64,000 nt of DNA from Phaeobacter piscinae. Its GTDB lineage: Bacteria > Pseudomonadota > Alphaproteobacteria > Rhodobacterales > Rhodobacteraceae. The position numbers and the translations under genes were made by a program. The notes below the pieces were generated by a model. The model made no database searches. It saw only the letters and a list, made by a program, of their open reading frames with translations, and was not told where the DNA came from. The stretch covers positions 3,100,001 to 3,164,000 of the forward strand of contig NZ_CP010681.1 of NCBI RefSeq assembly GCF_002407245.1, written 5' to 3'. Below, piece after piece: positions 9,968 through 40,678 of this stretch (the first letter of the stretch is position 1; each line of letters begins with the position of its first letter).

Positions 9968-9993
9968 GGAAATCGCCCCCGGGGGCGGTTTCC
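9968..9993. terminator. GC-rich hairpin between convergent genes
   Basis: GGAAATCGCCCCC is followed immediately by GGGGGCGGTTTCC, a 13-bp inverted repeat with one G-T pair and flanking A/T steps inside the stem. It lies ten bases after the transglycosylase stop and before the 3' end of the minus-strand gene at 10007. It is probably a bidirectional terminator. Confidence 0.7.
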
Positions 9994-10006
9994 GCAGGAT
10001 TGTGTC

Positions 10007-10396
10007 TCAGGGAATTTGCGATGATCGCACCGGAAACCTCTGCCCGTCAGAGGTAATGACCACAGTGCGATCCCGGTTGGTCACATATTGATCGCAACGG
10101 GACATGCCATTGACGAAAGTCACACAGACCTGACCATCCTGCGCGACACGATAGCTGCCCCATGCAGTGCCACCGCCATTTGCCGCTGAATAAGTGTAGG
10201 AATAGGCTCCGTCCTCCCCGAACAGCGCCTCACCATCATCATAAAAAACAATTGATTGCCCCGGCAGCGCCGCAAGCGCCTCTTCGTCGTAGGGCTGATC
10301 ACCCGCCCGCATTGCCCCATCCTGCGCCAATACAATACTTGGCACTTGGATTGATCCGAGAAGTACAAAAAAGACCAGCAGCAAGTGGTGTCTCAT
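10007..10396 (-). CDS. Small secreted hypothetical protein
   Basis: A 129-residue protein with a clear signal peptide (MRHHLLLVFFVLLGSIQVPSIVLAQ; probable cleavage after VLA). The acidic mature part carries a segment of repeated aromatic and glycine residues (GAYSYTYSAANGGGTAWGSYRV) and two cysteines in VCVTFVNGMSRC, which could form a disulfide in the periplasm. I do not recognise a named family, but the general pattern (GSYRVAQDGQVCVTF...) resembles small proteobacterial periplasmic proteins of unknown role. It stands alone, convergent with the transglycosylase. Confidence 0.7.
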   Translation of the reverse strand: MRHHLLLVFFVLLGSIQVPSIVLAQDGAMRAGDQPYDEEALAALPGQSIVFYDDGEALFGEDGAYSYTYSAANGGGTAWGSYRVAQDGQVCVTFVNGMSRCDQYVTNRDRTVVITSDGQRFPVRSSQIP

Positions 10397-32663: not shown

Positions 32664-33464
32664 ATGAGTGCACAAAACAAATCTCACGGCCGCAAGGCTA
32701 TTCGCCCCTCGTTCAAGCCACGCGAGCTGATGACGCCGACGCCGGATCTGGTCGGCGTTTGGAAGGCGAAAATCATGACCCTGTTCCCGCATGCCTTCCC
32801 CGGCATTCTGGGGGAAAGCCTGACCGGCAAGGCCCTGCAAGAGGGGCTGTGGCAGCTGGAGACCGTCGATCTGCGCCAATTCGGCATCGGAAAGCACCGC
32901 AATGTCGATGACACCCCCGCCGGCGGTGGCGCTGGTATGGTGCTGCGGGCGGATGTGCTTGGGGATGCGATTGAGCATACGATGGCGGGCGCTGTCGGCA
33001 ATTGGCCGTTGATCTACCTGTCGCCGCGCGGGCGCCGGATGGATCAGGCCTTGATGCAGGATCTGGCGCGCTGCGATGGTGTCACACTGCTTTGTGGACG
33101 TTTTGAAGGCGTCGATGAACGGGTTCTGCAACACTACGGCATTCAGGAAGTTTCTCTGGGGGATTTTGTGATGACCGGTGGCGAGATTGCAGCGCAGGCG
33201 ATGATCGACGCCACTGTGCGCCTGATCCCCGGCGTTCTTGGCAATCAAGCCTCCACCGAAGAGGAGAGTTTTTCCTCCGGCCTGCTTGAACATCCGCAAT
33301 ATACCCGCCCAGCGGAATGGAAAGGGCAGACCATTCCTGATGTGCTGATGTCCGGCCATCACGGTAAAATTGCTGAATGGCGCCAGAAAATGAGCGAAGA
33401 CATCACCAAGGCCCGACGCCCTGATCTCTGGCAGGCACACCAAGATCGCAAGACGCCAGACTGA
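32664..33464 (+). CDS. trmD: tRNA (guanine(37)-N1)-methyltransferase TrmD
   Basis: A 266-residue SPOUT methyltransferase that adds the methyl group to G37 of tRNAs with G36, preventing +1 frameshifts. The knot region contains LSPRGRRMDQALMQDLA, LLCGRFEGVDERVLQHYGIQEVSLGDFVMTGGEIAAQAMIDATVRLIPGVLG, which are TrmD hallmarks (given as separate motifs). A longer N-terminal segment (first 37 residues) before IMTLFPHAFPG is usual in Rhodobacterales. No strong ribosome binding site is visible before the ATG at 32664, which is 55 bases from the start of the divergent APH gene. Confidence 0.97.
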   Translation: MSAQNKSHGRKAIRPSFKPRELMTPTPDLVGVWKAKIMTLFPHAFPGILGESLTGKALQEGLWQLETVDLRQFGIGKHRNVDDTPAGGGAGMVLRADVLGDAIEHTMAGAVGNWPLIYLSPRGRRMDQALMQDLARCDGVTLLCGRFEGVDERVLQHYGIQEVSLGDFVMTGGEIAAQAMIDATVRLIPGVLGNQASTEEESFSSGLLEHPQYTRPAEWKGQTIPDVLMSGHHGKIAEWRQKMSEDITKARRPDLWQAHQDRKTPD

Positions 33465-33765
33465 ACGATTCGAAGGCGGGATTTGCGGTTCTTAAACGCG
33501 ACCTCTCCCCTTGATCCGCTGACCAAACAGGCATAAAAGGCCCCTGTCTGGATTCGCTGTTGCGTCTGTGGACCTGTGTTCTGTTGCATTTTGAAATCCC
33601 TGACCCGCCTTCTTCGGCAATTTGGGGGGCGCACGGTACACGCTTAGGAAAGAACGGAGTGATCTCTGGCGGGCTGCTATCTGCGGGACCCGGTGAAGAC
33701 CAAGAGCTCTCGCAACCGCGCAAAACTTCGTGGGCAAAACCACGAGCAACTATAGGAGACCTGCG
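33465..33765 (+). other. Intergenic leader region (301 bp) ahead of rplS
   Basis: This gap separates trmD from rplS in a cluster where genes are otherwise close, so it probably holds a promoter and 5' leader. A 6-bp hairpin TCGTGG-GCAAAA-CCACGA (33728-33745) lies nine bases before the AGGAG of rplS and could affect ribosome access. I see no coding frame with support here. Confidence 0.4.
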
Positions 33766-34137
33766 ATGGACCTGATCGCACAGTTGGAGGCGGAACAAGT
33801 TGCCGCCCTGGGGAAAGAGATCCCCGATTTCAAAGCCGGTGACACCATCCGCGTCGGCTACAAAGTGACCGAAGGCAGCCGTTCGCGCGTGCAGAACTAC
33901 GAAGGCGTCTGCATCAGCCGCAAAAACGGCTCCGGCATCGCCGGTTCGTTCACCGTTCGCAAAATTTCGTTTGGCGAAGGCGTGGAACGTGTGTTCCCGC
34001 TGCACTCGACCAACATCGACAGCATCACTGTCGTTCGCCGCGGCCGTGTGCGTCGCGCGAAACTGTACTATCTGCGCGCCCGTCGCGGTAAATCCGCACG
34101 GATTGCAGAAGATACAAACTACAAAGCCAAAGCGTAA
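33766..34137 (+). CDS. rplS: 50S ribosomal protein L19
   Basis: A 123-residue ribosomal protein at the 30S-50S interface. Conserved segments: [57 protein letters not shown] and [27 protein letters not shown] precedes the ATG at 33766 by about 7 bases; an upstream in-frame ATG at 33730 is excluded by the strong ribosome binding site. rpmE follows after 11 bases. Confidence 0.98.
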
Positions 34138-34148
34138 GGAGTGGTATC

Positions 34149-34370
34149 ATGAAAGCAGACACCCATCCCGAATACCACTTCATCGACGTCAAAATGACCG
34201 ATGGCACCATCCTCAAGATGCGCTCCACCTGGGGCAAAGAGGGTGACACTCTGGCGCTGGACATCGACCCCACCGTGCATCCCGCATGGACCGGTGGCTC
34301 CACCCGTCTGATGGACGCCGGTGGCCGCGTGTCCAAGTTCAAAAAGAAATACGAAGGTCTGGGCTTCTAA
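34149..34370 (+). CDS. rpmE: 50S ribosomal protein L31 (zinc-free form)
   Basis: A 73-residue ribosomal protein beginning [20 protein letters not shown]. No CxxC zinc-ribbon cysteines are present (the sequence has no Cys), so this is the Cys-minus form as usual in Rhodobacterales. It ends [16 protein letters not shown] lies upstream. It is cotranscribed with rplS, and a strong intrinsic terminator follows. Confidence 0.97.
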
Positions 34371-34393
34371 GCCAACCTGTCTTGTTTTTTCGG

Positions 34394-34424
34394 AAAACGC
34401 CGCTCTTTTGAGCGGCGTTTTTTG
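34394..34424 (+). terminator. Intrinsic terminator after rpmE
   Basis: AACGCCGCTC and GAGCGGCGTT form a 10-bp stem with a TTTT loop, followed by a run of T (to 34423). It lies 24 bases after the rpmE stop and closes the rplS-rpmE transcript. Confidence 0.95.
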
Positions 34425-34589
34425 TTGCAACTCCGGCGACCATGTTCATTGCGCAAGTTCACCCTGAGGAAACTACAGAGCCTAAATCAGGCCCTAACCT
34501 GCGGATATCGCGCTTCCCATCGATTCGACCGGACAGTATAGTCAGCCCAAGATGCGCAGTATTTTGCGCAGTGATTGGGGGAAGTGAAC

Positions 34590-35399
34590 GTGGCGCATAT
34601 TATTGTCGTCGGCAACGAAAAAGGTGGGGCGGGCAAGTCCACCGTCTCCATGCATGTGGCAACCACGCTGGCCCGGCTGGGGTACAAAATTGCCGCCTTG
34701 GACCTTGATCTGCGGCAGCGGTCGCTCGGGCGCTATCTGGAGAACCGCAAGGCGTTCATGGAGAAAGCCGCGCTGGAGCTGCCGCTGGTTGCCCTGCACG
34801 AGCTCCCTGAAATCGACGCCGATAGCCTGCAACCCGGCGAGAATGTCTACGATCACCGACTGTCTGCTGCGGTCTCCGAACTGGAACCCAGCAATGATTT
34901 CATCCTGATCGACTGCCCCGGATCGCACACCCGTCTAAGCCAGGTCGCCCATTCGCTGGCAGACACGCTGATCACGCCGCTGAACGACAGTTTTGTCGAT
35001 TTTGACCTCCTCGCTCACACCGATCAGAAAGGTGAGAAAATCACCGGCCCGTCCGTCTATTCCGAAATGGTCTGGAATGCGCGGCAGCTGCGGGCCCAGG
35101 CCGGGTTGAAGCCGATTGATTGGATCGTGATCCGCAATCGTGTTGGCACCCAGCGCATGGTCAACAAGGAGAAGATGGAACGCGCCATTTCCATGCTGTC
35201 CAAACGGATCGGGTTTCGCGTGGCGCCCGGCTTTTCCGAGCGCGTGGTCTTTCGGGAGTTGTTCCCGCGTGGGCTGACGTTGCTGGACCTGAAGGATATT
35301 GGCGTCAAACAGCTGAATATCTCCAATATCGCCGCACGTCAGGAACTGCGGGACATGATGAAATCGTTGAACCTGCCAGGCGTGGATGTCGATATCTGA
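34590..35399 (+). CDS. mipZ: Division-plane positioning ATPase MipZ
   Basis: A 269-residue ParA/MinD-type ATPase. The deviant Walker A is NEKGGAGKSTVSMHVATTLA near the N-terminus. LALDLDLRQRSLGRYLENR-type text follows (AALDLDLRQRSLGRYLENRK), and Walker B is FILIDCPGSHTRLS. In alphaproteobacteria MipZ forms a pole-to-midcell gradient with ParB and blocks FtsZ assembly near the origins. The GTG at 34590 gives the family N-terminus MAHIIVVGNEKGG and has GGGGAAG five bases upstream; further in-frame TTG and GTG codons upstream are less likely. Its last 14 bases overlap the exosortase gene. Confidence 0.95.
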   Translation: MAHIIVVGNEKGGAGKSTVSMHVATTLARLGYKIAALDLDLRQRSLGRYLENRKAFMEKAALELPLVALHELPEIDADSLQPGENVYDHRLSAAVSELEPSNDFILIDCPGSHTRLSQVAHSLADTLITPLNDSFVDFDLLAHTDQKGEKITGPSVYSEMVWNARQLRAQAGLKPIDWIVIRNRVGTQRMVNKEKMERAISMLSKRIGFRVAPGFSERVVFRELFPRGLTLLDLKDIGVKQLNISNIAARQELRDMMKSLNLPGVDVDI

Positions 35400-37014
35400 C
35401 CAGCCCCCCATCACCGGCGAGACCGGTCCGATCGCTCAGCGCGGCGGGCGTCGGCTGGTCCTGATCCTTGGGCTGGCAGTTGCTGAACTGTTTGTCATCA
35501 TGGTGGCCTATCAGCTGCTGGCCAATGTGCATTGCAAATTCACCGGCGCAGATCTGGCGTGCACAACTGTGCGCTCGATCGCCGGGCGCTTGTTGGCCGT
35601 TCTAACCGTGCTTGGGCTTTATCTGATCCTGATGCGCAGCGCATATCACGCATTGACGTCTGCCATCGGACAGGCCCCAAGACGCCCCTCGGCGCTGGTG
35701 CTCAACCTTGCGGGCCTAATGATCGCGCTTGTCCCGTTGGCACTGTTTGGCCCTACCGGGATCAACGCATGGATATCGCCGACGCTCATTCTAATCTGCC
35801 TCGGCGGCGCTATTGCCGGACTGGGTGGGGTGCTGTCCCTGATGCCACTGCGTGCATGGCTGATCTGGTTGCGCGGCTGCGGGCTCTCTTTGACGCTGGC
35901 GCTGATGGTGGCGCTGGTCATGCCGGACATCACCCGCATGATGGAGCCGATCTGGAACATTGAGGCACTGACCTCGGTGACCTTCGTTCTGGTGACATGG
36001 GTACTGGAAGTCTCGGGCGCGACGGTCTGGTCTGATGCGGCGCTGCATCTGATCCGCGTTGACGGGTTTCTGGTGGAGATCGGCGAACCATGCTCCGGCG
36101 TGGAGGGCTTTGCGCTCGTCACCACCTTTATGGGGCTATATGCGTTACTGATGGGACGGGATATTCGTCAGACACGGTACTGGCTGGTCTTGTTCCCTGC
36201 GGCGCTGCTGCTCAGCTGGGCATTCAACATCGTGCGTATCGCCATCCTGATCCTGATCGGTGCATGGATCGCACCGGAGCATGCCGTTAACGGCTTCCAC
36301 AGTTACGCCGGCTGGCTGATGTTTACACTATTGGCGCTGCTGGTGCTGGCCATTGCGCATCGCTCTCGCTGGTTGCAGACCAATCCAGAGGCGCTGGCCG
36401 CAGCTGCGGCTGAACTGCCGCCGATGCGCGCTGATATGCTGCTTGCCTCCATCGTCCCATTCATCGTGATGATGTTAAGCGGTGTGCTGGTGTCCGCGAT
36501 TTGGGCAGATCCTGCGCAAGGGTACCCGCTGCGCGCCGCGATGATGGCCGCCGCTTTGCTCGTATTCTGGCCTGCCCTGCGCCAGTTGGCATATCGACCA
36601 AGGCCAATTGACATCGCGGCCGGCGCCGCGATCGCCGCTGTCTGGATTGTGATGTCCACACCGGACATCAGCCGGGGTGGCACCGATGAACGCGATATGC
36701 TCTGGGTTGGCACACGTCTTCTCGGCACCGTCGTTCTGATCCCGATTATCGAAGAGTTGTTCTTTCGCGGATATTTGCTGCGCCGCATGGCAGGACAAGG
36801 TCAGATTCTACGGGCCGTTGTCGCACTTCTCATCACGAGCGCCCTCTTTGGCCTGATGCACGACCGTTTTGCCTTGGGAATGGCGGCTGGCGCCATCTTT
36901 GGTGCGCTATATTTGCGCGGCGGCGGTCTGGCTGCGGCGATACTGGCCCATATGGTGGCCAATGCGCTGATCGCCTATGTCGCCTTTGCCACAGCAAACT
37001 GGGCCCTGATCTAG
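35386..37014 (+). CDS. xrtE: Exosortase E / CAAX-type (CPBP) protease fusion, VPEID-CTERM system
   Basis: A 542-residue polytopic membrane protein made of two enzymes. Residues 1-330 are an exosortase: the catalytic triad is visible as Cys236 in EPCSGVEGF, Arg284 in NIVRIAILI and His305 in HSYAGWLMF. Residues 350-542 are a CPBP/Abi-type intramembrane protease with EELFFRGYLLRR (Glu456, Glu457, Arg461), LFGLMHDRF (His492) and AHMVANALIAY (His522, Asn526). This matches the exosortase E/protease family linked to VPEID-CTERM proteins. The ATG at 35386 lies inside the 3' end of mipZ (14-base overlap). A VPEID protein gene converges from the right 36 bases away, which is the predicted substrate. 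Confidence 0.93.
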   Translation: MSISDQPPITGETGPIAQRGGRRLVLILGLAVAELFVIMVAYQLLANVHCKFTGADLACTTVRSIAGRLLAVLTVLGLYLILMRSAYHALTSAIGQAPRRPSALVLNLAGLMIALVPLALFGPTGINAWISPTLILICLGGAIAGLGGVLSLMPLRAWLIWLRGCGLSLTLALMVALVMPDITRMMEPIWNIEALTSVTFVLVTWVLEVSGATVWSDAALHLIRVDGFLVEIGEPCSGVEGFALVTTFMGLYALLMGRDIRQTRYWLVLFPAALLLSWAFNIVRIAILILIGAWIAPEHAVNGFHSYAGWLMFTLLALLVLAIAHRSRWLQTNPEALAAAAAELPPMRADMLLASIVPFIVMMLSGVLVSAIWADPAQGYPLRAAMMAAALLVFWPALRQLAYRPRPIDIAAGAAIAAVWIVMSTPDISRGGTDERDMLWVGTRLLGTVVLIPIIEELFFRGYLLRRMAGQGQILRAVVALLITSALFGLMHDRFALGMAAGAIFGALYLRGGGLAAAILAHMVANALIAYVAFATANWALI

Positions 37015-37050
37015 ACCCGGTTTCCTCTGTCGTCATACGCCATCACAGCA

Positions 37051-37362
37051 TCAGTTCTGTATGGATCGGCGGCGGCGCAGTTCCCAAGTCAGCAGAAGCG
37101 CTGCCGCAACCGCAGCGACGGCGAGCAGACCGGCACTGACATCAATTTCCGGAACCGTCTGGCCCCCACCGTTGCCATTGCCATTTCCGTTACCTCCGCC
37201 GTTGCCCCAGCCGTTGCCCCAGCCATTGCCCCAGCCGTTGCCGTTGCCGTTCCCAGGGCCACCCGCATCCGGCCACTCACCCGCTGCAAAGGCATTCGGA
37301 CCAGTTGCAAACCACACAGCCGCTGCGGCTGTCAGATGGGTCATGCGCAGTGTCAGTTTCAT
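37051..37362 (-). CDS. VPEID-CTERM sorting-domain protein, Gly/Asn-rich
   Basis: A 103-residue exported protein. It has a signal peptide (residues 1-27, ending NAFAA), a low-complexity Gly/Asn/Trp-rich mature region with GNGWGN repeats (about 36-67), and the sorting motif VPEID (70-74). A membrane helix (75-92) and a basic cluster RRRR near the C-terminus follow. This is the standard CTERM tripartite signal, with the signature of the VPEID variety handled by exosortase E. By analogy with PEP-CTERM systems, the exosortase should cut near VPEID and move the protein to the cell surface. The convergent exosortase gene 36 bases away makes the pairing very likely. The mature function is unknown. 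Confidence 0.9.
   Translation of the reverse strand: MKLTLRMTHLTAAAAVWFATGPNAFAAGEWPDAGGPGNGNGNGWGNGWGNGWGNGGGNGNGNGNGGGQTVPEIDVSAGLLAVAAVAAALLLTWELRRRRSIQN
37171..37254 (-). repeat. Short tandem repeats encoding the GNGWGN tract
   Basis: Three consecutive 12-bp units (GTTGCCCCAGCC on the plus strand, 37201-37236) are flanked by degenerate 6-bp units (GTTGCC/ATTGCC). They encode the Gly-Asn-(Gly-Trp) repeats. Copy-number change by slippage would keep the reading frame, so length polymorphism between strains is expected. Confidence 0.85.
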
Positions 37363-37475
37363 TGCATCTTATCCTTGCTGCTCTGTCGCTGTCCGGGGTG
37401 ACGCGTTGCGAGGTTTCGACGAATCTCACTGACCACACCCTTTTCCTGCTTTCAGCACTAAGGGAGAAAAATGCG

Positions 37476-37493
37476 AAAATTATGGCAAATTTT
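37476..37493. promoter_or_regulatory. AT-rich inverted repeat upstream of the VPEID gene
   Basis: AAAATT (37476-37481) and AATTTT (37488-37493) form a perfect 6-bp inverted repeat with a 6-base spacer, 114 bases upstream of the VPEID-CTERM start and 39 bases after the cyclase 3' end. It is the most obvious candidate operator in the VPEID promoter region, but AT-rich palindromes arise by chance. Confidence 0.3.
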
Positions 37494-37531
37494 ACCTTTC
37501 GCTGAATTCCAGCCCCAACAGGTCGCGGAAA

Positions 37532-38746
37532 TTACCCCTCGTAGATCGTGAACAACTCCACCGGCTCTGCGACACCGCGCAGCATATAGCGACCCAACGA
37601 GACCAGATCATGGTTGGTCGGTTGAGCTGCTTTTTGCACCTGCTCAGATACGATGATGCTGCGCCCAACGGAGGTATGCATACCGGATATCCGCGCCGTC
37701 AGATTGACGGTTGGCCCGATAACTGTGAAATCCAGCCGGTTCTCAGAGCCGATATTTCCGTAGAGGATTTCGCCCGCGTGCAGCGCCAGAGTGAAATCCG
37801 CAGTTGGCACGCCTTGCGCTGCGCGCTCCTTATTGCGCTTGCGAATTTTCCCCTGCAGTGCGCTGGCGGCAGCGAGGGCAGCAGTCGCGTCCTCACCAAT
37901 GCTGCCAAGATCGAACATGGACAATATGCCATCACCCATGAATTTCAGGATATTCCCGCCGTGAGACTGGATTGTCTCAACAGCCAGACCAAAGTAATCG
38001 TTGAGCATATCAATCAGCTCGGCACCCGGAATTTGCTCTGCCAGCTGGGTGAACCCTTTCAGATCGAAGTAACAGATCACCGCATCAATCTGGCGGGAAG
38101 ATCCGCGTTGAATTTCGCCCGACAAAACCCGCTGCCCGGCGTCGCGCCCCAGATAGACCTGTAACAGATCTTTGGCCATCTGCTGTGCAGATGCCGCGCG
38201 CAGCGCCAATGCCAGATGCGAGTAAATCTGGCGGATCAGGGCCAAGTCTGTATCTGTAAATCCCTCGGGATGATCGGTCGACCAGGACGACAAAATCCCC
38301 TCACCCGGGCGGCGCGGATCAAAGGGTGCGTCAGCGAAATCGCCGAACCGCTTTGCCAAGGCAAAGTAATCCGTTGCTCCGCGCTGCTTGAACTGCGCCA
38401 ACGCTGGAAACCTCTCCAGAACATGGCCTGTCAGCTTACTGCGGAACTCAGGCACATCGCGTTCCAACATGTAGTAGAAGGTGCTGTAGAGCCATTCATC
38501 TCGTGGGGTATCGCTGTGTTCATAGAACTCATGCGACAGCCCGTCGGCCCGCGTCCAGCTGAACCCAATACCACCATATTTCGGATGATAGGCGCGCTGT
38601 GCCAGATGGAAGCGTAGCAGGGGTACCCCGGTATCGGCGAGCCTCTGGCAGAATCCCTGCAACATCTCCTGACGGCTGGCCCCCCGTAGCCCTTCAGCAG
38701 TGAGCCAGTCGATTATCGGCGTGGCGCGTGAAGCGGCATCCGTCAT
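37532..38746 (-). CDS. Class III adenylate/guanylate cyclase with N-terminal sensory-like domain
   Basis: A 404-residue protein. The C-terminal cyclase domain (from about 205) starts with IDAVICYFDLKGFTQLAEQIPG, where the FDLKGFT motif holds the first metal Asp, and continues with GGNILKFMGDGILSMF and FTLALHAGEILYGNIGSENRLDFTVIGPTVNLTARIS. The N-terminal 190 residues are soluble, with no membrane helices; the part RRPGEGILSSWSTDHPEGFTDTDLALIRQIYSHLALALRA resembles the end of a GAF/PAS-type helix connector. The ATG at 38746 is chosen among three in-frame ATGs because of the GAGG upstream. It lies downstream of a MarR gene on the same strand but with its own gap. Confidence 0.9.
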   Translation of the reverse strand: MTDAASRATPIIDWLTAEGLRGASRQEMLQGFCQRLADTGVPLLRFHLAQRAYHPKYGGIGFSWTRADGLSHEFYEHSDTPRDEWLYSTFYYMLERDVPEFRSKLTGHVLERFPALAQFKQRGATDYFALAKRFGDFADAPFDPRRPGEGILSSWSTDHPEGFTDTDLALIRQIYSHLALALRAASAQQMAKDLLQVYLGRDAGQRVLSGEIQRGSSRQIDAVICYFDLKGFTQLAEQIPGAELIDMLNDYFGLAVETIQSHGGNILKFMGDGILSMFDLGSIGEDATAALAAASALQGKIRKRNKERAAQGVPTADFTLALHAGEILYGNIGSENRLDFTVIGPTVNLTARISGMHTSVGRSIIVSEQVQKAAQPTNHDLVSLGRYMLRGVAEPVELFTIYEG

Positions 38747-38803
38747 TATGCACGGCCTCATATTGTGGTCCCGGTCCAATCTGAGGCCTCAACCCGGCGA
38801 TGT

Positions 38804-39244
38804 CTATGGCTCAATTCCTGCAAGTTTGCGCAACATGTCGCGCAGCGCCGCACTTTCCCCGTCGCTAAGCCGCCCCGCGAGTTGACGATCATAGATCGCA
38901 GCCTGCGTACTCAGGTCCCGGTAAGCGGCCTCACCTTGCGACGTAAGTTCCAGGTGCTCGGCACGACGATCTTTCTCGTCGCGATGACGTAGCACAAAAC
39001 GACGTTCCGCCAGTTTCGCAACCGCCCGACTGATCTTCGTCTTGTGTATCTTGGCACGCTGGCCGATCTCGGTTGCTGTCATGCGGCCGTAATTGCCCAA
39101 GTGAAACAGCACACGCCATTCATTGCGCAGCATTCCATAGCGGTTCTTGTAGTGCTTTTGAAACTCAAGCGAGGATTCCTCCGCCGCCCGGTTGAGCAGA
39201 TACGGCAAGAAATCCTGTAACGCGAAGTCATCTTTTTCATCCAT
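38804..39244 (-). CDS. MarR-family regulator, probable repressor of the homogentisate operon
   Basis: A 146-residue winged-helix regulator. The DNA-binding part is [63 protein letters not shown], typical MarR with the wing DEKDRRAEH (given by its ends). It is divergent from hmgA across 72 bases that contain an 18-bp inverted repeat (39265-39282), the natural operator for both genes. In Pseudomonas the hmg repressor is IclR-type, so a MarR protein would be an alternative solution in this lineage. Effector unknown; homogentisate or a related aromatic acid is the obvious guess. Confidence 0.88.
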
Positions 39245-39264
39245 AGGGCAGAGCTATCCCTTGT

Positions 39265-39282
39265 TAGTTACAAAATCAACTA
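39265..39282. promoter_or_regulatory. Candidate MarR operator between marR and hmgA
   Basis: TAGTT (39265-39269) and AACTA (39278-39282) form an inverted repeat spanning 18 bp, the usual span of MarR-family sites. It lies about 21 bases from the regulator start and 35 bases before hmgA, in a 72-base divergent gap. Binding is inference from position and symmetry. Confidence 0.55.
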
Positions 39283-39316
39283 TTACCGAAACAGAGAACA
39301 CCAAAAGGAGCGCCTC

Positions 39317-40678
39317 ATGAATCACAAAGTCGATGCCCATGAAATGATCCAGGCCCCGTCTCTTGCCGGGCCTCACGCGGGCTATATGCCCGGATTTGGC
39401 AATGACTTTGAGACAGAAGCGTTGCCCGGCGCCCTGCCGCAAGGCATGAACAGCCCGCAGAAATGCAACTACGGTCTCTATGGTGAACAGCTGAGTGGCA
39501 CCGCCTTTACCGCCCCAAGCCACCAGAATGAGCGCACCTGGTGCTATCGCATTCGCCCCTCGGTAAAACACTCTCATCGCTACACCAAGATTGATCTGCC
39601 CTATTGGAAGTCCGCCCCGAACGTGGATCCGGATGTGATCAGCCTCGGTCAGTACCGCTGGGATCCGGTGCCGCATGGCACCGAGGGACTGACCTGGCTC
39701 ACGGGCATGCGCACCATGACCACGGCAGGTGATGTGAACACCCAGGTCGGCATGGCGAGCCATGTCTATCTGGTCACCGACTCGATGGTGGACAGCTATT
39801 TCTATTCCGCTGATTCCGAATTGCTGGTGGTTCCACAGGAAGGGCGCCTGCGGTTTGCGACTGAGCTGGGCATCATTGATCTCGAGCCCCAGGAAATCGC
39901 CATCATCCCACGCGGGCTGGTCTACCGGGTCGAAGTGCTGGACGGCCCCTGTCGTGGCTTTGTCTGCGAAAACTACGGGCAGAAGTTTGAATTGCCTGGC
40001 CGTGGCCCGATCGGTGCCAACTGCATGGCCAATCCGCGCGATTTCAAGGCGCCGGTGGCGGCGTTTGAGGACCGCGAGACGCCATCCACCGTCACCATCA
40101 AGTGGTGTGGCCAGTTTCACGAGACCAGGATCGGTCACTCACCGCTGGATGTGGTGGCCTGGCACGGCAACTACGCGCCAATGAAATATGACCTGCGGAC
40201 CTATTGCCCGGTTGGCGCCATCCTGTTTGACCACCCGGATCCGTCGATCTTTACTGTGCTGACGGCCCCATCGGGCCAGCCCGGCACCGCAAATATCGAT
40301 TTCGTGTTGTTCCGGGAACGCTGGATGGTGGCAGAAGATACCTTCCGCCCGCCGTGGTATCACAAGAACATCATGTCCGAGCTGATGGGCAATATCTATG
40401 GCCAGTATGACGCCAAGCCACAGGGCTTTGTCCCCGGTGGTGTCAGCCTGCACAATATGATGCTGCCGCATGGCCCGGACAGAAACGCATTTGAGGGCGC
40501 ATCCAACGCAAACTTGGGTCCGGAAAAGTTGGACAATACCATGTCCTTCATGTTCGAGACGCGTTTCCCGCAGCATCTGACGCCATTTGCCGCCAATGAG
40601 GCACCGCTGCAGGATGACTACATCGATTGCTGGGCTGACATCGAAAAGAAATTCGACGGCACCCCGGGCAAAAAATAA
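39317..40678 (+). CDS. hmgA: Homogentisate 1,2-dioxygenase
   Basis: A 453-residue non-haem iron enzyme that opens the ring of homogentisate to maleylacetoacetate. Recognisable motifs: [25 protein letters not shown] near the N-terminus, [47 protein letters not shown] in the cupin region, and the metal-binding [27 protein letters not shown] with [14 protein letters not shown] after it (His-Glu-His ligands). It opens the seven-gene aromatic operon. AAAAGGAG lies before the ATG. Length and motifs are fully normal. Confidence 0.98.

What the first reader, a model, noticed from the sequence alone, without database searches (positions are those of the whole stretch)
35386..37362. Self-contained exosortase E/CAAX-protease fusion facing its probable VPEID-CTERM substrate
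Seen: a 542-residue protein with exosortase Cys/Arg/His residues (236, 284, 305) and a C-terminal CPBP-type protease with EE, His and His-Asn positions. A convergent gene 36 bases away encodes a signal peptide, Gly/Asn/Trp-rich repeats, VPEID, a membrane helix and a basic tail. Known: exosortase E/VPEID-CTERM is a dedicated sorting system described in roseobacters. Inference: one enzyme may cut and transfer at VPEID while the second protease domain trims the released helix, for a single surface protein. The exosortase gene overlaps mipZ by 14 bases, tying a surface-sorting enzyme to the cell-division gradient gene. The biological purpose is unknown.
Basis: partly seen in the sequence, partly recalled or inferred. 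Interest (0 to 1): 0.8.

Follow-up and report, generated by a model that had tools for sequence, protein, structure and literature searches.

The report
Exosortase E and its mini-peptide substrate
A roseobacter carries a known two-gene pair of a membrane enzyme and its tagged target; comparing relatives suggests that the target is a short peptide rather than a surface protein, and that its place beside a cell-division gene is only where the pair happened to land.

Summary
The 542-residue protein is exosortase E/protease (TIGR04162, 803 bits) and the facing gene is its VPEID-CTERM partner (TIGR04161, 57 bits). The genome has one exosortase and one VPEID-CTERM. This is a curated family pair, so the window holds a new member of a known kind. 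Of 292 genomes in the order, 31 have both genes, one only the enzyme, one only the tail. Both active sites are invariant wherever present in 85 distinct enzymes.

The mipZ link is positional: 24 of 111 loci, one clade. In 4 of 24 other genomes tested, mipZ, cyclase and marR genes are contiguous without the pair.

The surprise lies in relatives. In the 72 of 96 distinct substrates measured, cargo is 10-62 residues (heuristic). Another 16 of 96 show no signal peptide, a state needing at least four changes on the enzyme tree, against published statements on exosortase targets. All 16 VPEIS-type genes found follow a large adhesin-like gene. I read the system as peptide display: a short peptide cut at VPEID and probably fixed to an unknown acceptor. 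Nothing was shown biochemically.

The parts
35386..37014 (+). xrtE: exosortase E/protease fusion, 542 aa, multi-helix membrane protein
   Evidence: TIGR04162 803 bits over residues 27-542; AlphaFold model mean pLDDT 87.6, pTM 0.75
35611..36360 (+). exosortase domain (residues 76-325)
   Evidence: PF09721 54.5 bits (cut-off 25.7), TIGR04178 61.7 bits (cut-off 23)
36091..36093 (+). codon for Cys236, presumed nucleophile; Arg284 at 36235-36237 and His305 at 36298-36300
   Evidence: invariant in 85 of 85 distinct XrtE; catalytic role inferred from the family
36715..36969 (+). CPBP (Rce1-like) glutamic intramembrane protease domain (residues 444-528)
   Evidence: PF02517 63.8 bits, TIGR03008 102.1 bits; EE456/457, H492, H522, N526 invariant in 84 of 84
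37051..37362 (-). VPEID-CTERM mini-protein gene, 103 aa
   Evidence: TIGR04161 57.4 bits; only one in the genome
37285..37362 (-). likely signal peptide (residues 1-26)
   Evidence: hydrophobic window plus A-x-A rule; heuristic, just over the threshold
37147..37284 (-). predicted cargo, about 46 residues, Gly/Asn/Trp repeats up to VPE
   Evidence: heuristic cleavage sites
37063..37155 (-). VPEID motif, membrane helix and basic tail (residues 70-100)
   Evidence: TIGR04161 match
34575..35399 (+). context: mipZ (start codon uncertain), overlaps xrtE by 14 bases; not part of the system
   Evidence: PF09140 385 bits; adjacency confined to one clade
37532..38779 (-). context: adenylate/guanylate cyclase-domain gene; directly follows mipZ in four relatives that have no xrtE at this place
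   Evidence: PF00211 49.7 bits; L177-L180

Best explanation
This is a complete exosortase E/VPEID-CTERM system. Inferred steps: the mini-protein is inserted with its N-terminal part in the periplasm and its basic tail in the cytoplasm. The exosortase Cys/Arg/His centre recognises VPEID and cuts there, most likely passing the new C-terminus to a small acceptor such as a lipid. The fused CPBP protease makes a second cut or removes the leftover helix. The product is a short surface peptide (about 46 residues here), not a folded surface protein. Family membership is shown. Pairing and conservation of both active sites are shown by comparison. Cleavage, acceptor, order of cuts and final location are inference. 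The place next to mipZ is, by inference, where the two-gene unit landed in an ancestor of the Phaeobacter/Shimia clade.
For: Family models. One exosortase and one VPEID tail in this genome. 31 of 292 genomes have both genes, 32 have each, one copy per genome there. 103 of 111 XrtE loci hold a VPEID-type gene in the fetched stretch (the 111 include some species twice, and the profile used was partly built from these loci). Both active sites invariant wherever present in 85 distinct enzymes. Small cargo: 55 downstream-type substrates with signal peptide 12-62 residues (median 32), 17 upstream-type 10-23 (median 15). In 15 substrates without signal peptide the N-tail carries net charge -1 to -4 and the C-tail +3 to +5. 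mipZ-cyclase-marR contiguous without xrtE in L177-L180; mipZ adjacency in one clade.
Against: G178 (99% complete draft) has an intact VPEIS tail but no match to any exosortase. 8 of 111 XrtE loci show no VPEID gene nearby. G263 has enzyme and substrate on different contigs. One xrtE has an in-frame stop before the CPBP part. No biochemical evidence; no solved relative found by sequence or by whole-chain fold (inconclusive).
Confidence: 0.6

Rival explanations
1. The enzyme releases a free peptide (signal or antagonistic peptide) instead of fixing it to the surface; the CPBP domain makes the releasing cut.
For: Cargo is short, differs between genera, and has a Cys pair in 10 of 72 measured rows or is rich in Trp; L128 has three such genes in tandem.
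Against: Cargo looks alike within a genus (Shimia rows). I recognised no receptor or immunity-like family among the 40 neighbour clusters listed, but I saw only the first residues of one member each and scanned few against Pfam, so this is weak.
Confidence: 0.2
2. The mini-protein is not a substrate but a small membrane partner or regulator of XrtE (or of the adhesin), never cut.
For: Substrates without signal peptide are 52-58 aa single-helix proteins (15 rows); one VPEIS gene lives without any exosortase match (G178); the VPEIS-adhesin neighbourhood is kept in 16 of 16 even where xrtE is missing or elsewhere.
Against: Motif, helix and basic tail match a sorting-signal model; in 31 of 33 genomes with either gene the tail goes with a processing enzyme that keeps two active sites.
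Confidence: 0.15
3. One reading: XrtE is functionally coupled to MipZ and cell division through the overlapping genes.
For: 14-base overlap, same strand; all 7 genomes of the genus have xrtE.
Against: mipZ adjacency in 24 of 111 loci, one clade; 24 of 24 other genomes tested have mipZ without xrtE within 1.5 kb, six of them with xrtE elsewhere.
Confidence: 0.03

Closest known systems
Exosortase E/protease, VPEID-CTERM system (TIGR04162 / TIGR04161)
   Same: Both models match far above cut-off; one enzyme, one target, adjacent genes.
   Different: Nothing in the window itself; position after mipZ is particular to one clade.
PEP-CTERM/exosortase (EpsH, XrtA) with the CAAX prenyl protease-related protein TIGR03008
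   Same: Exosortase domain, and a CPBP domain that scores 102 bits with TIGR03008 (cut-off 81).
   Different: Here the two are one protein, and there is one mini-substrate; PEP-CTERM species often have twenty or more targets (PMC3237569, passage).
Myxosortase (MrtX)/MYXO-CTERM and MrtJ/JDVT-CTERM
   Same: CPBP protease and a motif-helix-basic tail; MrtJ is also a two-gene, single-target pair (PMC11980579, passages). The window's tail scores 16.2 bits with the MYXO-CTERM model, under its cut-off of 20.
   Different: No exosortase domain described there, and an invariant Cys in the MYXO-CTERM motif; the VPEID tail here has none.
Rhombosortase/GlyGly-CTERM dedicated systems
   Same: In genomes with a single target, enzyme and target tend to be adjacent (PMC3237569, passages).
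   Different: Unrelated rhomboid serine protease.

Membership tests
Exosortase E (TIGR04162) | score over the curated cut-off of 150 bits | tested here: met
   803 bits, residues 27-542
Exosortase E (TIGR04162) | exosortase Cys, Arg, His present | tested here: met
   C236, R284, H305 invariant in 85 of 85, inside the TIGR04178 match; PMC1569441 (passages) names absolutely conserved Cys, Arg and His in EpsH; not aligned residue by residue to EpsH here
Exosortase E (TIGR04162) | C-terminal CPBP/CAAX protease with catalytic residues | tested here: met
   PF02517 63.8 bits; EE, H, H, N invariant in 84 of 84
VPEID-CTERM (TIGR04161) | score over the cut-off of 33 bits at the C-terminus | tested here: met
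   57.4 bits, residues 70-100 of 103
VPEID-CTERM (TIGR04161) | co-occurrence with exosortase E | tested here: met
   31 of 33 genomes that have either gene have both; exceptions G178 and G273
Exosortase sorting system | C-terminal cleavage and transfer of the target | not testable with these tools
   needs protein chemistry
Exosortase sorting system | substrate has an N-terminal signal peptide | tested here: inconclusive
   window substrate just passes a home-made hydrophobicity rule (1.59 against 1.5); 16 of 96 distinct family substrates clearly fail it
Solved fold of exosortase or Rce1 | structural match in PDB | tested here: inconclusive

The most novel reading that the evidence does not exclude
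XrtE/VPEID is a peptide-display system. Its enzyme processes mini-proteins whose extracytoplasmic part is only 10-62 residues, and in several lineages these lack a signal peptide and insert N-out through the sorting helix alone. In the VPEIS branch the mini-protein serves as a separate, processed partner of a large adhesin encoded just upstream, so adhesin and sorting signal sit on two polypeptides. This would break the stated rule that exosortase targets are signal-peptide-bearing proteins.
Probability: 0.45. Interest if true: 0.7.

Novelty: new member of a known kind. Interest (0 to 1): 0.45.

Why it matters
As far as I know (recalled), exosortase chemistry is largely inferred. A system with one enzyme, one substrate of 103 residues here and 52-58 in some relatives, and both catalytic domains on one chain is a very simple test object: the whole substrate can be made synthetically and its product weighed. 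If the cargo really is a short peptide, sometimes without a signal peptide, the accepted picture of what exosortases sort has to be widened.

Tried and rejected
mipZ coupling: rejected as a functional link. Whole-chain fold search of the XrtE model against PDB: no useful match; the domains were not folded singly. Sequence search of PDB with the XrtE profile: no match at E<=0.01. Rfam at 33000-40000: none. Promoter/terminator scan at 34100-37700: two promoter-like sites against 1.4 expected, six terminator-like against 2.8, not used.

Literature. (exosortase E, VPEID-CTERM): 2 papers, none with VPEID-CTERM. (exosortase and roseobacter): 4 papers, by their listing on other topics, not opened; 20 of 29 listed. 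(VPEID, TIGR04162, TIGR04161, xrtE): 20 of 24 listed, none on this system by title; only 10 of 620 listed, none of the ten with the word exosortase, so it says little; 2 papers, not opened. The 2012 J Bacteriol paper that I recall as the first description is not held, so I could not check what it says about substrate size or signal peptides. PMC11980579, PMC3237569, PMC1569441 and PMC12188702 were read as passages only. PMC1569441 says PEP-CTERM proteins 'generally' have a signal peptide, which is milder than the other two statements.

Rows dropped. The tree has 85 rows, the window's included: the simple gene caller found xrtE in 97 loci, and rows identical in their last 300 residues or under 350 residues were left out. 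Cargo statistics cover 72 of 96 rows: left out are the 16 without signal peptide, L075, L125, L128, L169, L173 and rows between thresholds (L077, L155). My profile was built from tails that include some loci it then found, so those hits are partly circular; the independent evidence is. The tree is a quick one (SH-aLRT only).

Full report
What is there. xrtE (35386-37014, +) follows mipZ with a 14-base overlap and faces a 103-residue gene (37051-37362, -) across 36 bases. xrtE matches TIGR04162 at 803 bits (cut-off 150); the small gene matches TIGR04161 at 57.4 bits (cut-off 33). Pfam sees an exosortase domain and a CPBP/Rce1-like domain in one chain.

Is it the only one? The genome has one match to TIGR04161 even at E<=10, one to the VPEID codon pattern (the backwards control also occurs once) and one to the exosortase/archaeosortase domain. 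In 292 genomes of the order, 32 have XrtE and 32 a VPEID tail at the thresholds used, one each, and 31 have both. The exceptions are G178 (tail, no exosortase match) and G273 (enzyme, tail below threshold; a VPEID-ending gene lies upstream). In a class-wide draw 4 of 337 genomes have XrtE, one of them outside the window's family.

Both active sites are kept. Across 85 distinct enzymes Cys236, Arg284, His305 and a Cys50/Cys59 pair are invariant; EE456/457, Arg461, His492, His522 and Asn526 are invariant in 84 of 84, the remaining row ending before them. That speaks for two working catalytic centres, not one relic.

mipZ is a neighbour by accident. tblastn finds mipZ beside xrtE in 24 of 111 loci, 4-101 bases from the aligned xrtE start. 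These loci, some of them species held twice, fall with the window in one 20-row clade of the enzyme tree (support 99). In 24 of 24 other genomes tested, mipZ has no xrtE within 1.5 kb; six of these carry xrtE elsewhere. Four of the six (L177-L180) have mipZ, cyclase gene and marR contiguous; in the window xrtE and the VPEID gene lie between mipZ and that cyclase gene. Other lineages have the pair beside an RND pump (PF00873), an adhesin-like gene (SdrD_B) or polysaccharide-type genes (YjbH checked by Pfam, the rest by eye).

The cargo is small. 96 distinct substrates were collected. With a heuristic cleavage rule, 55 of the downstream type have 12-62 residues up to VPE (median 32; 12% Trp, 30% Gly), and 17 of the upstream type have 10-23 (median 15, no Trp); ten of these 72 have a Cys pair. 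Among the 32 rows the longest stop-to-stop frame is 272 residues, so no large VPEID protein was seen there.

Some have no signal peptide. In 16 of 96 the stretch from the first possible start codon to VPEID has no hydrophobic segment (best 11-residue mean under 0.8). In eight, zero to six residues separate the upstream in-frame stop from the start (L160, L139, L117, L118, L083, L165, L141, L163). Fifteen of them are 52-58 residues long. They look like real genes: in seven of eight pairs compared, differing codons are mostly synonymous (for example 25 to 4 between L139 and L160), in one pair even (10 to 10, L119 and L167). N-tails are negative and C-tails positive, as expected for N-out insertion. 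On the enzyme tree (78 rows with a substrate, 16 without signal peptide) the state needs at least four changes. PMC3237569 says that LPXTG and PEP-CTERM proteins always have a signal peptide, PMC12188702 that exosortase targets contain one, and PMC1569441 only that PEP-CTERM proteins generally do (passages).

An adhesin partner in one branch. All 16 VPEIS-type genes found have a large adhesin-like gene on the same strand whose last match ends 197-289 bases before the motif; three members scanned carry SdrD_B and bacterial Ig or cadherin-like domains. The 16 include the genome without exosortase (L095) and the one with xrtE on another contig (L096). L094, with a VPEIDLF tail, has none. This suggests, but does not show, that the mini-protein works with the adhesin. 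The window's pair has no such neighbour.

How it most likely works. Insertion with tail inside; recognition and cut at VPEID by the exosortase centre, probably with transfer to a small acceptor; second cut or clean-up by the CPBP centre; a short peptide left at the surface. Release as a free peptide, or no cutting at all, remain possible. The finding in the window is ordinary for its kind; the size of the family's substrates and the missing signal peptides are what deserve a second look.

Noticed in passing
L095 (G178), VPEIS gene 9992-10204 (-): Intact VPEIS tail gene beside an adhesin-like gene and what reads like a polysaccharide chain-length gene, in a 99% complete genome with no exosortase match.
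   Followed up: partly
L128, three genes downstream of xrtE: Three VPEI-tail mini-genes in tandem behind one xrtE; at least one shows no signal peptide.
   Followed up: no
L073 / L119 (Roseovarius gaetbuli): xrtE has an in-frame stop that cuts off the CPBP part, in a species whose substrate shows no signal peptide.
   Followed up: no
L147 and L172 (Rubellimicrobium arenae); L113 and L146 (MAG HF-Dia18): Two xrtE copies in one genome; L172 has no VPEID gene nearby.
   Followed up: no
L150 and L166 (Leisingera aquaemixtae), L113 and L146 (MAG HF-Dia18): xrtE near polysaccharide-type genes (by eye), with a GN-rich substrate 1.4-1.7 kb downstream on the same strand; its cargo resembles the window's.
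   Followed up: partly
window 35533-35562, xrtE residues 50 and 59: A Cys pair is invariant in 85 of 85 enzymes; possibly a periplasmic disulfide.
   Followed up: no
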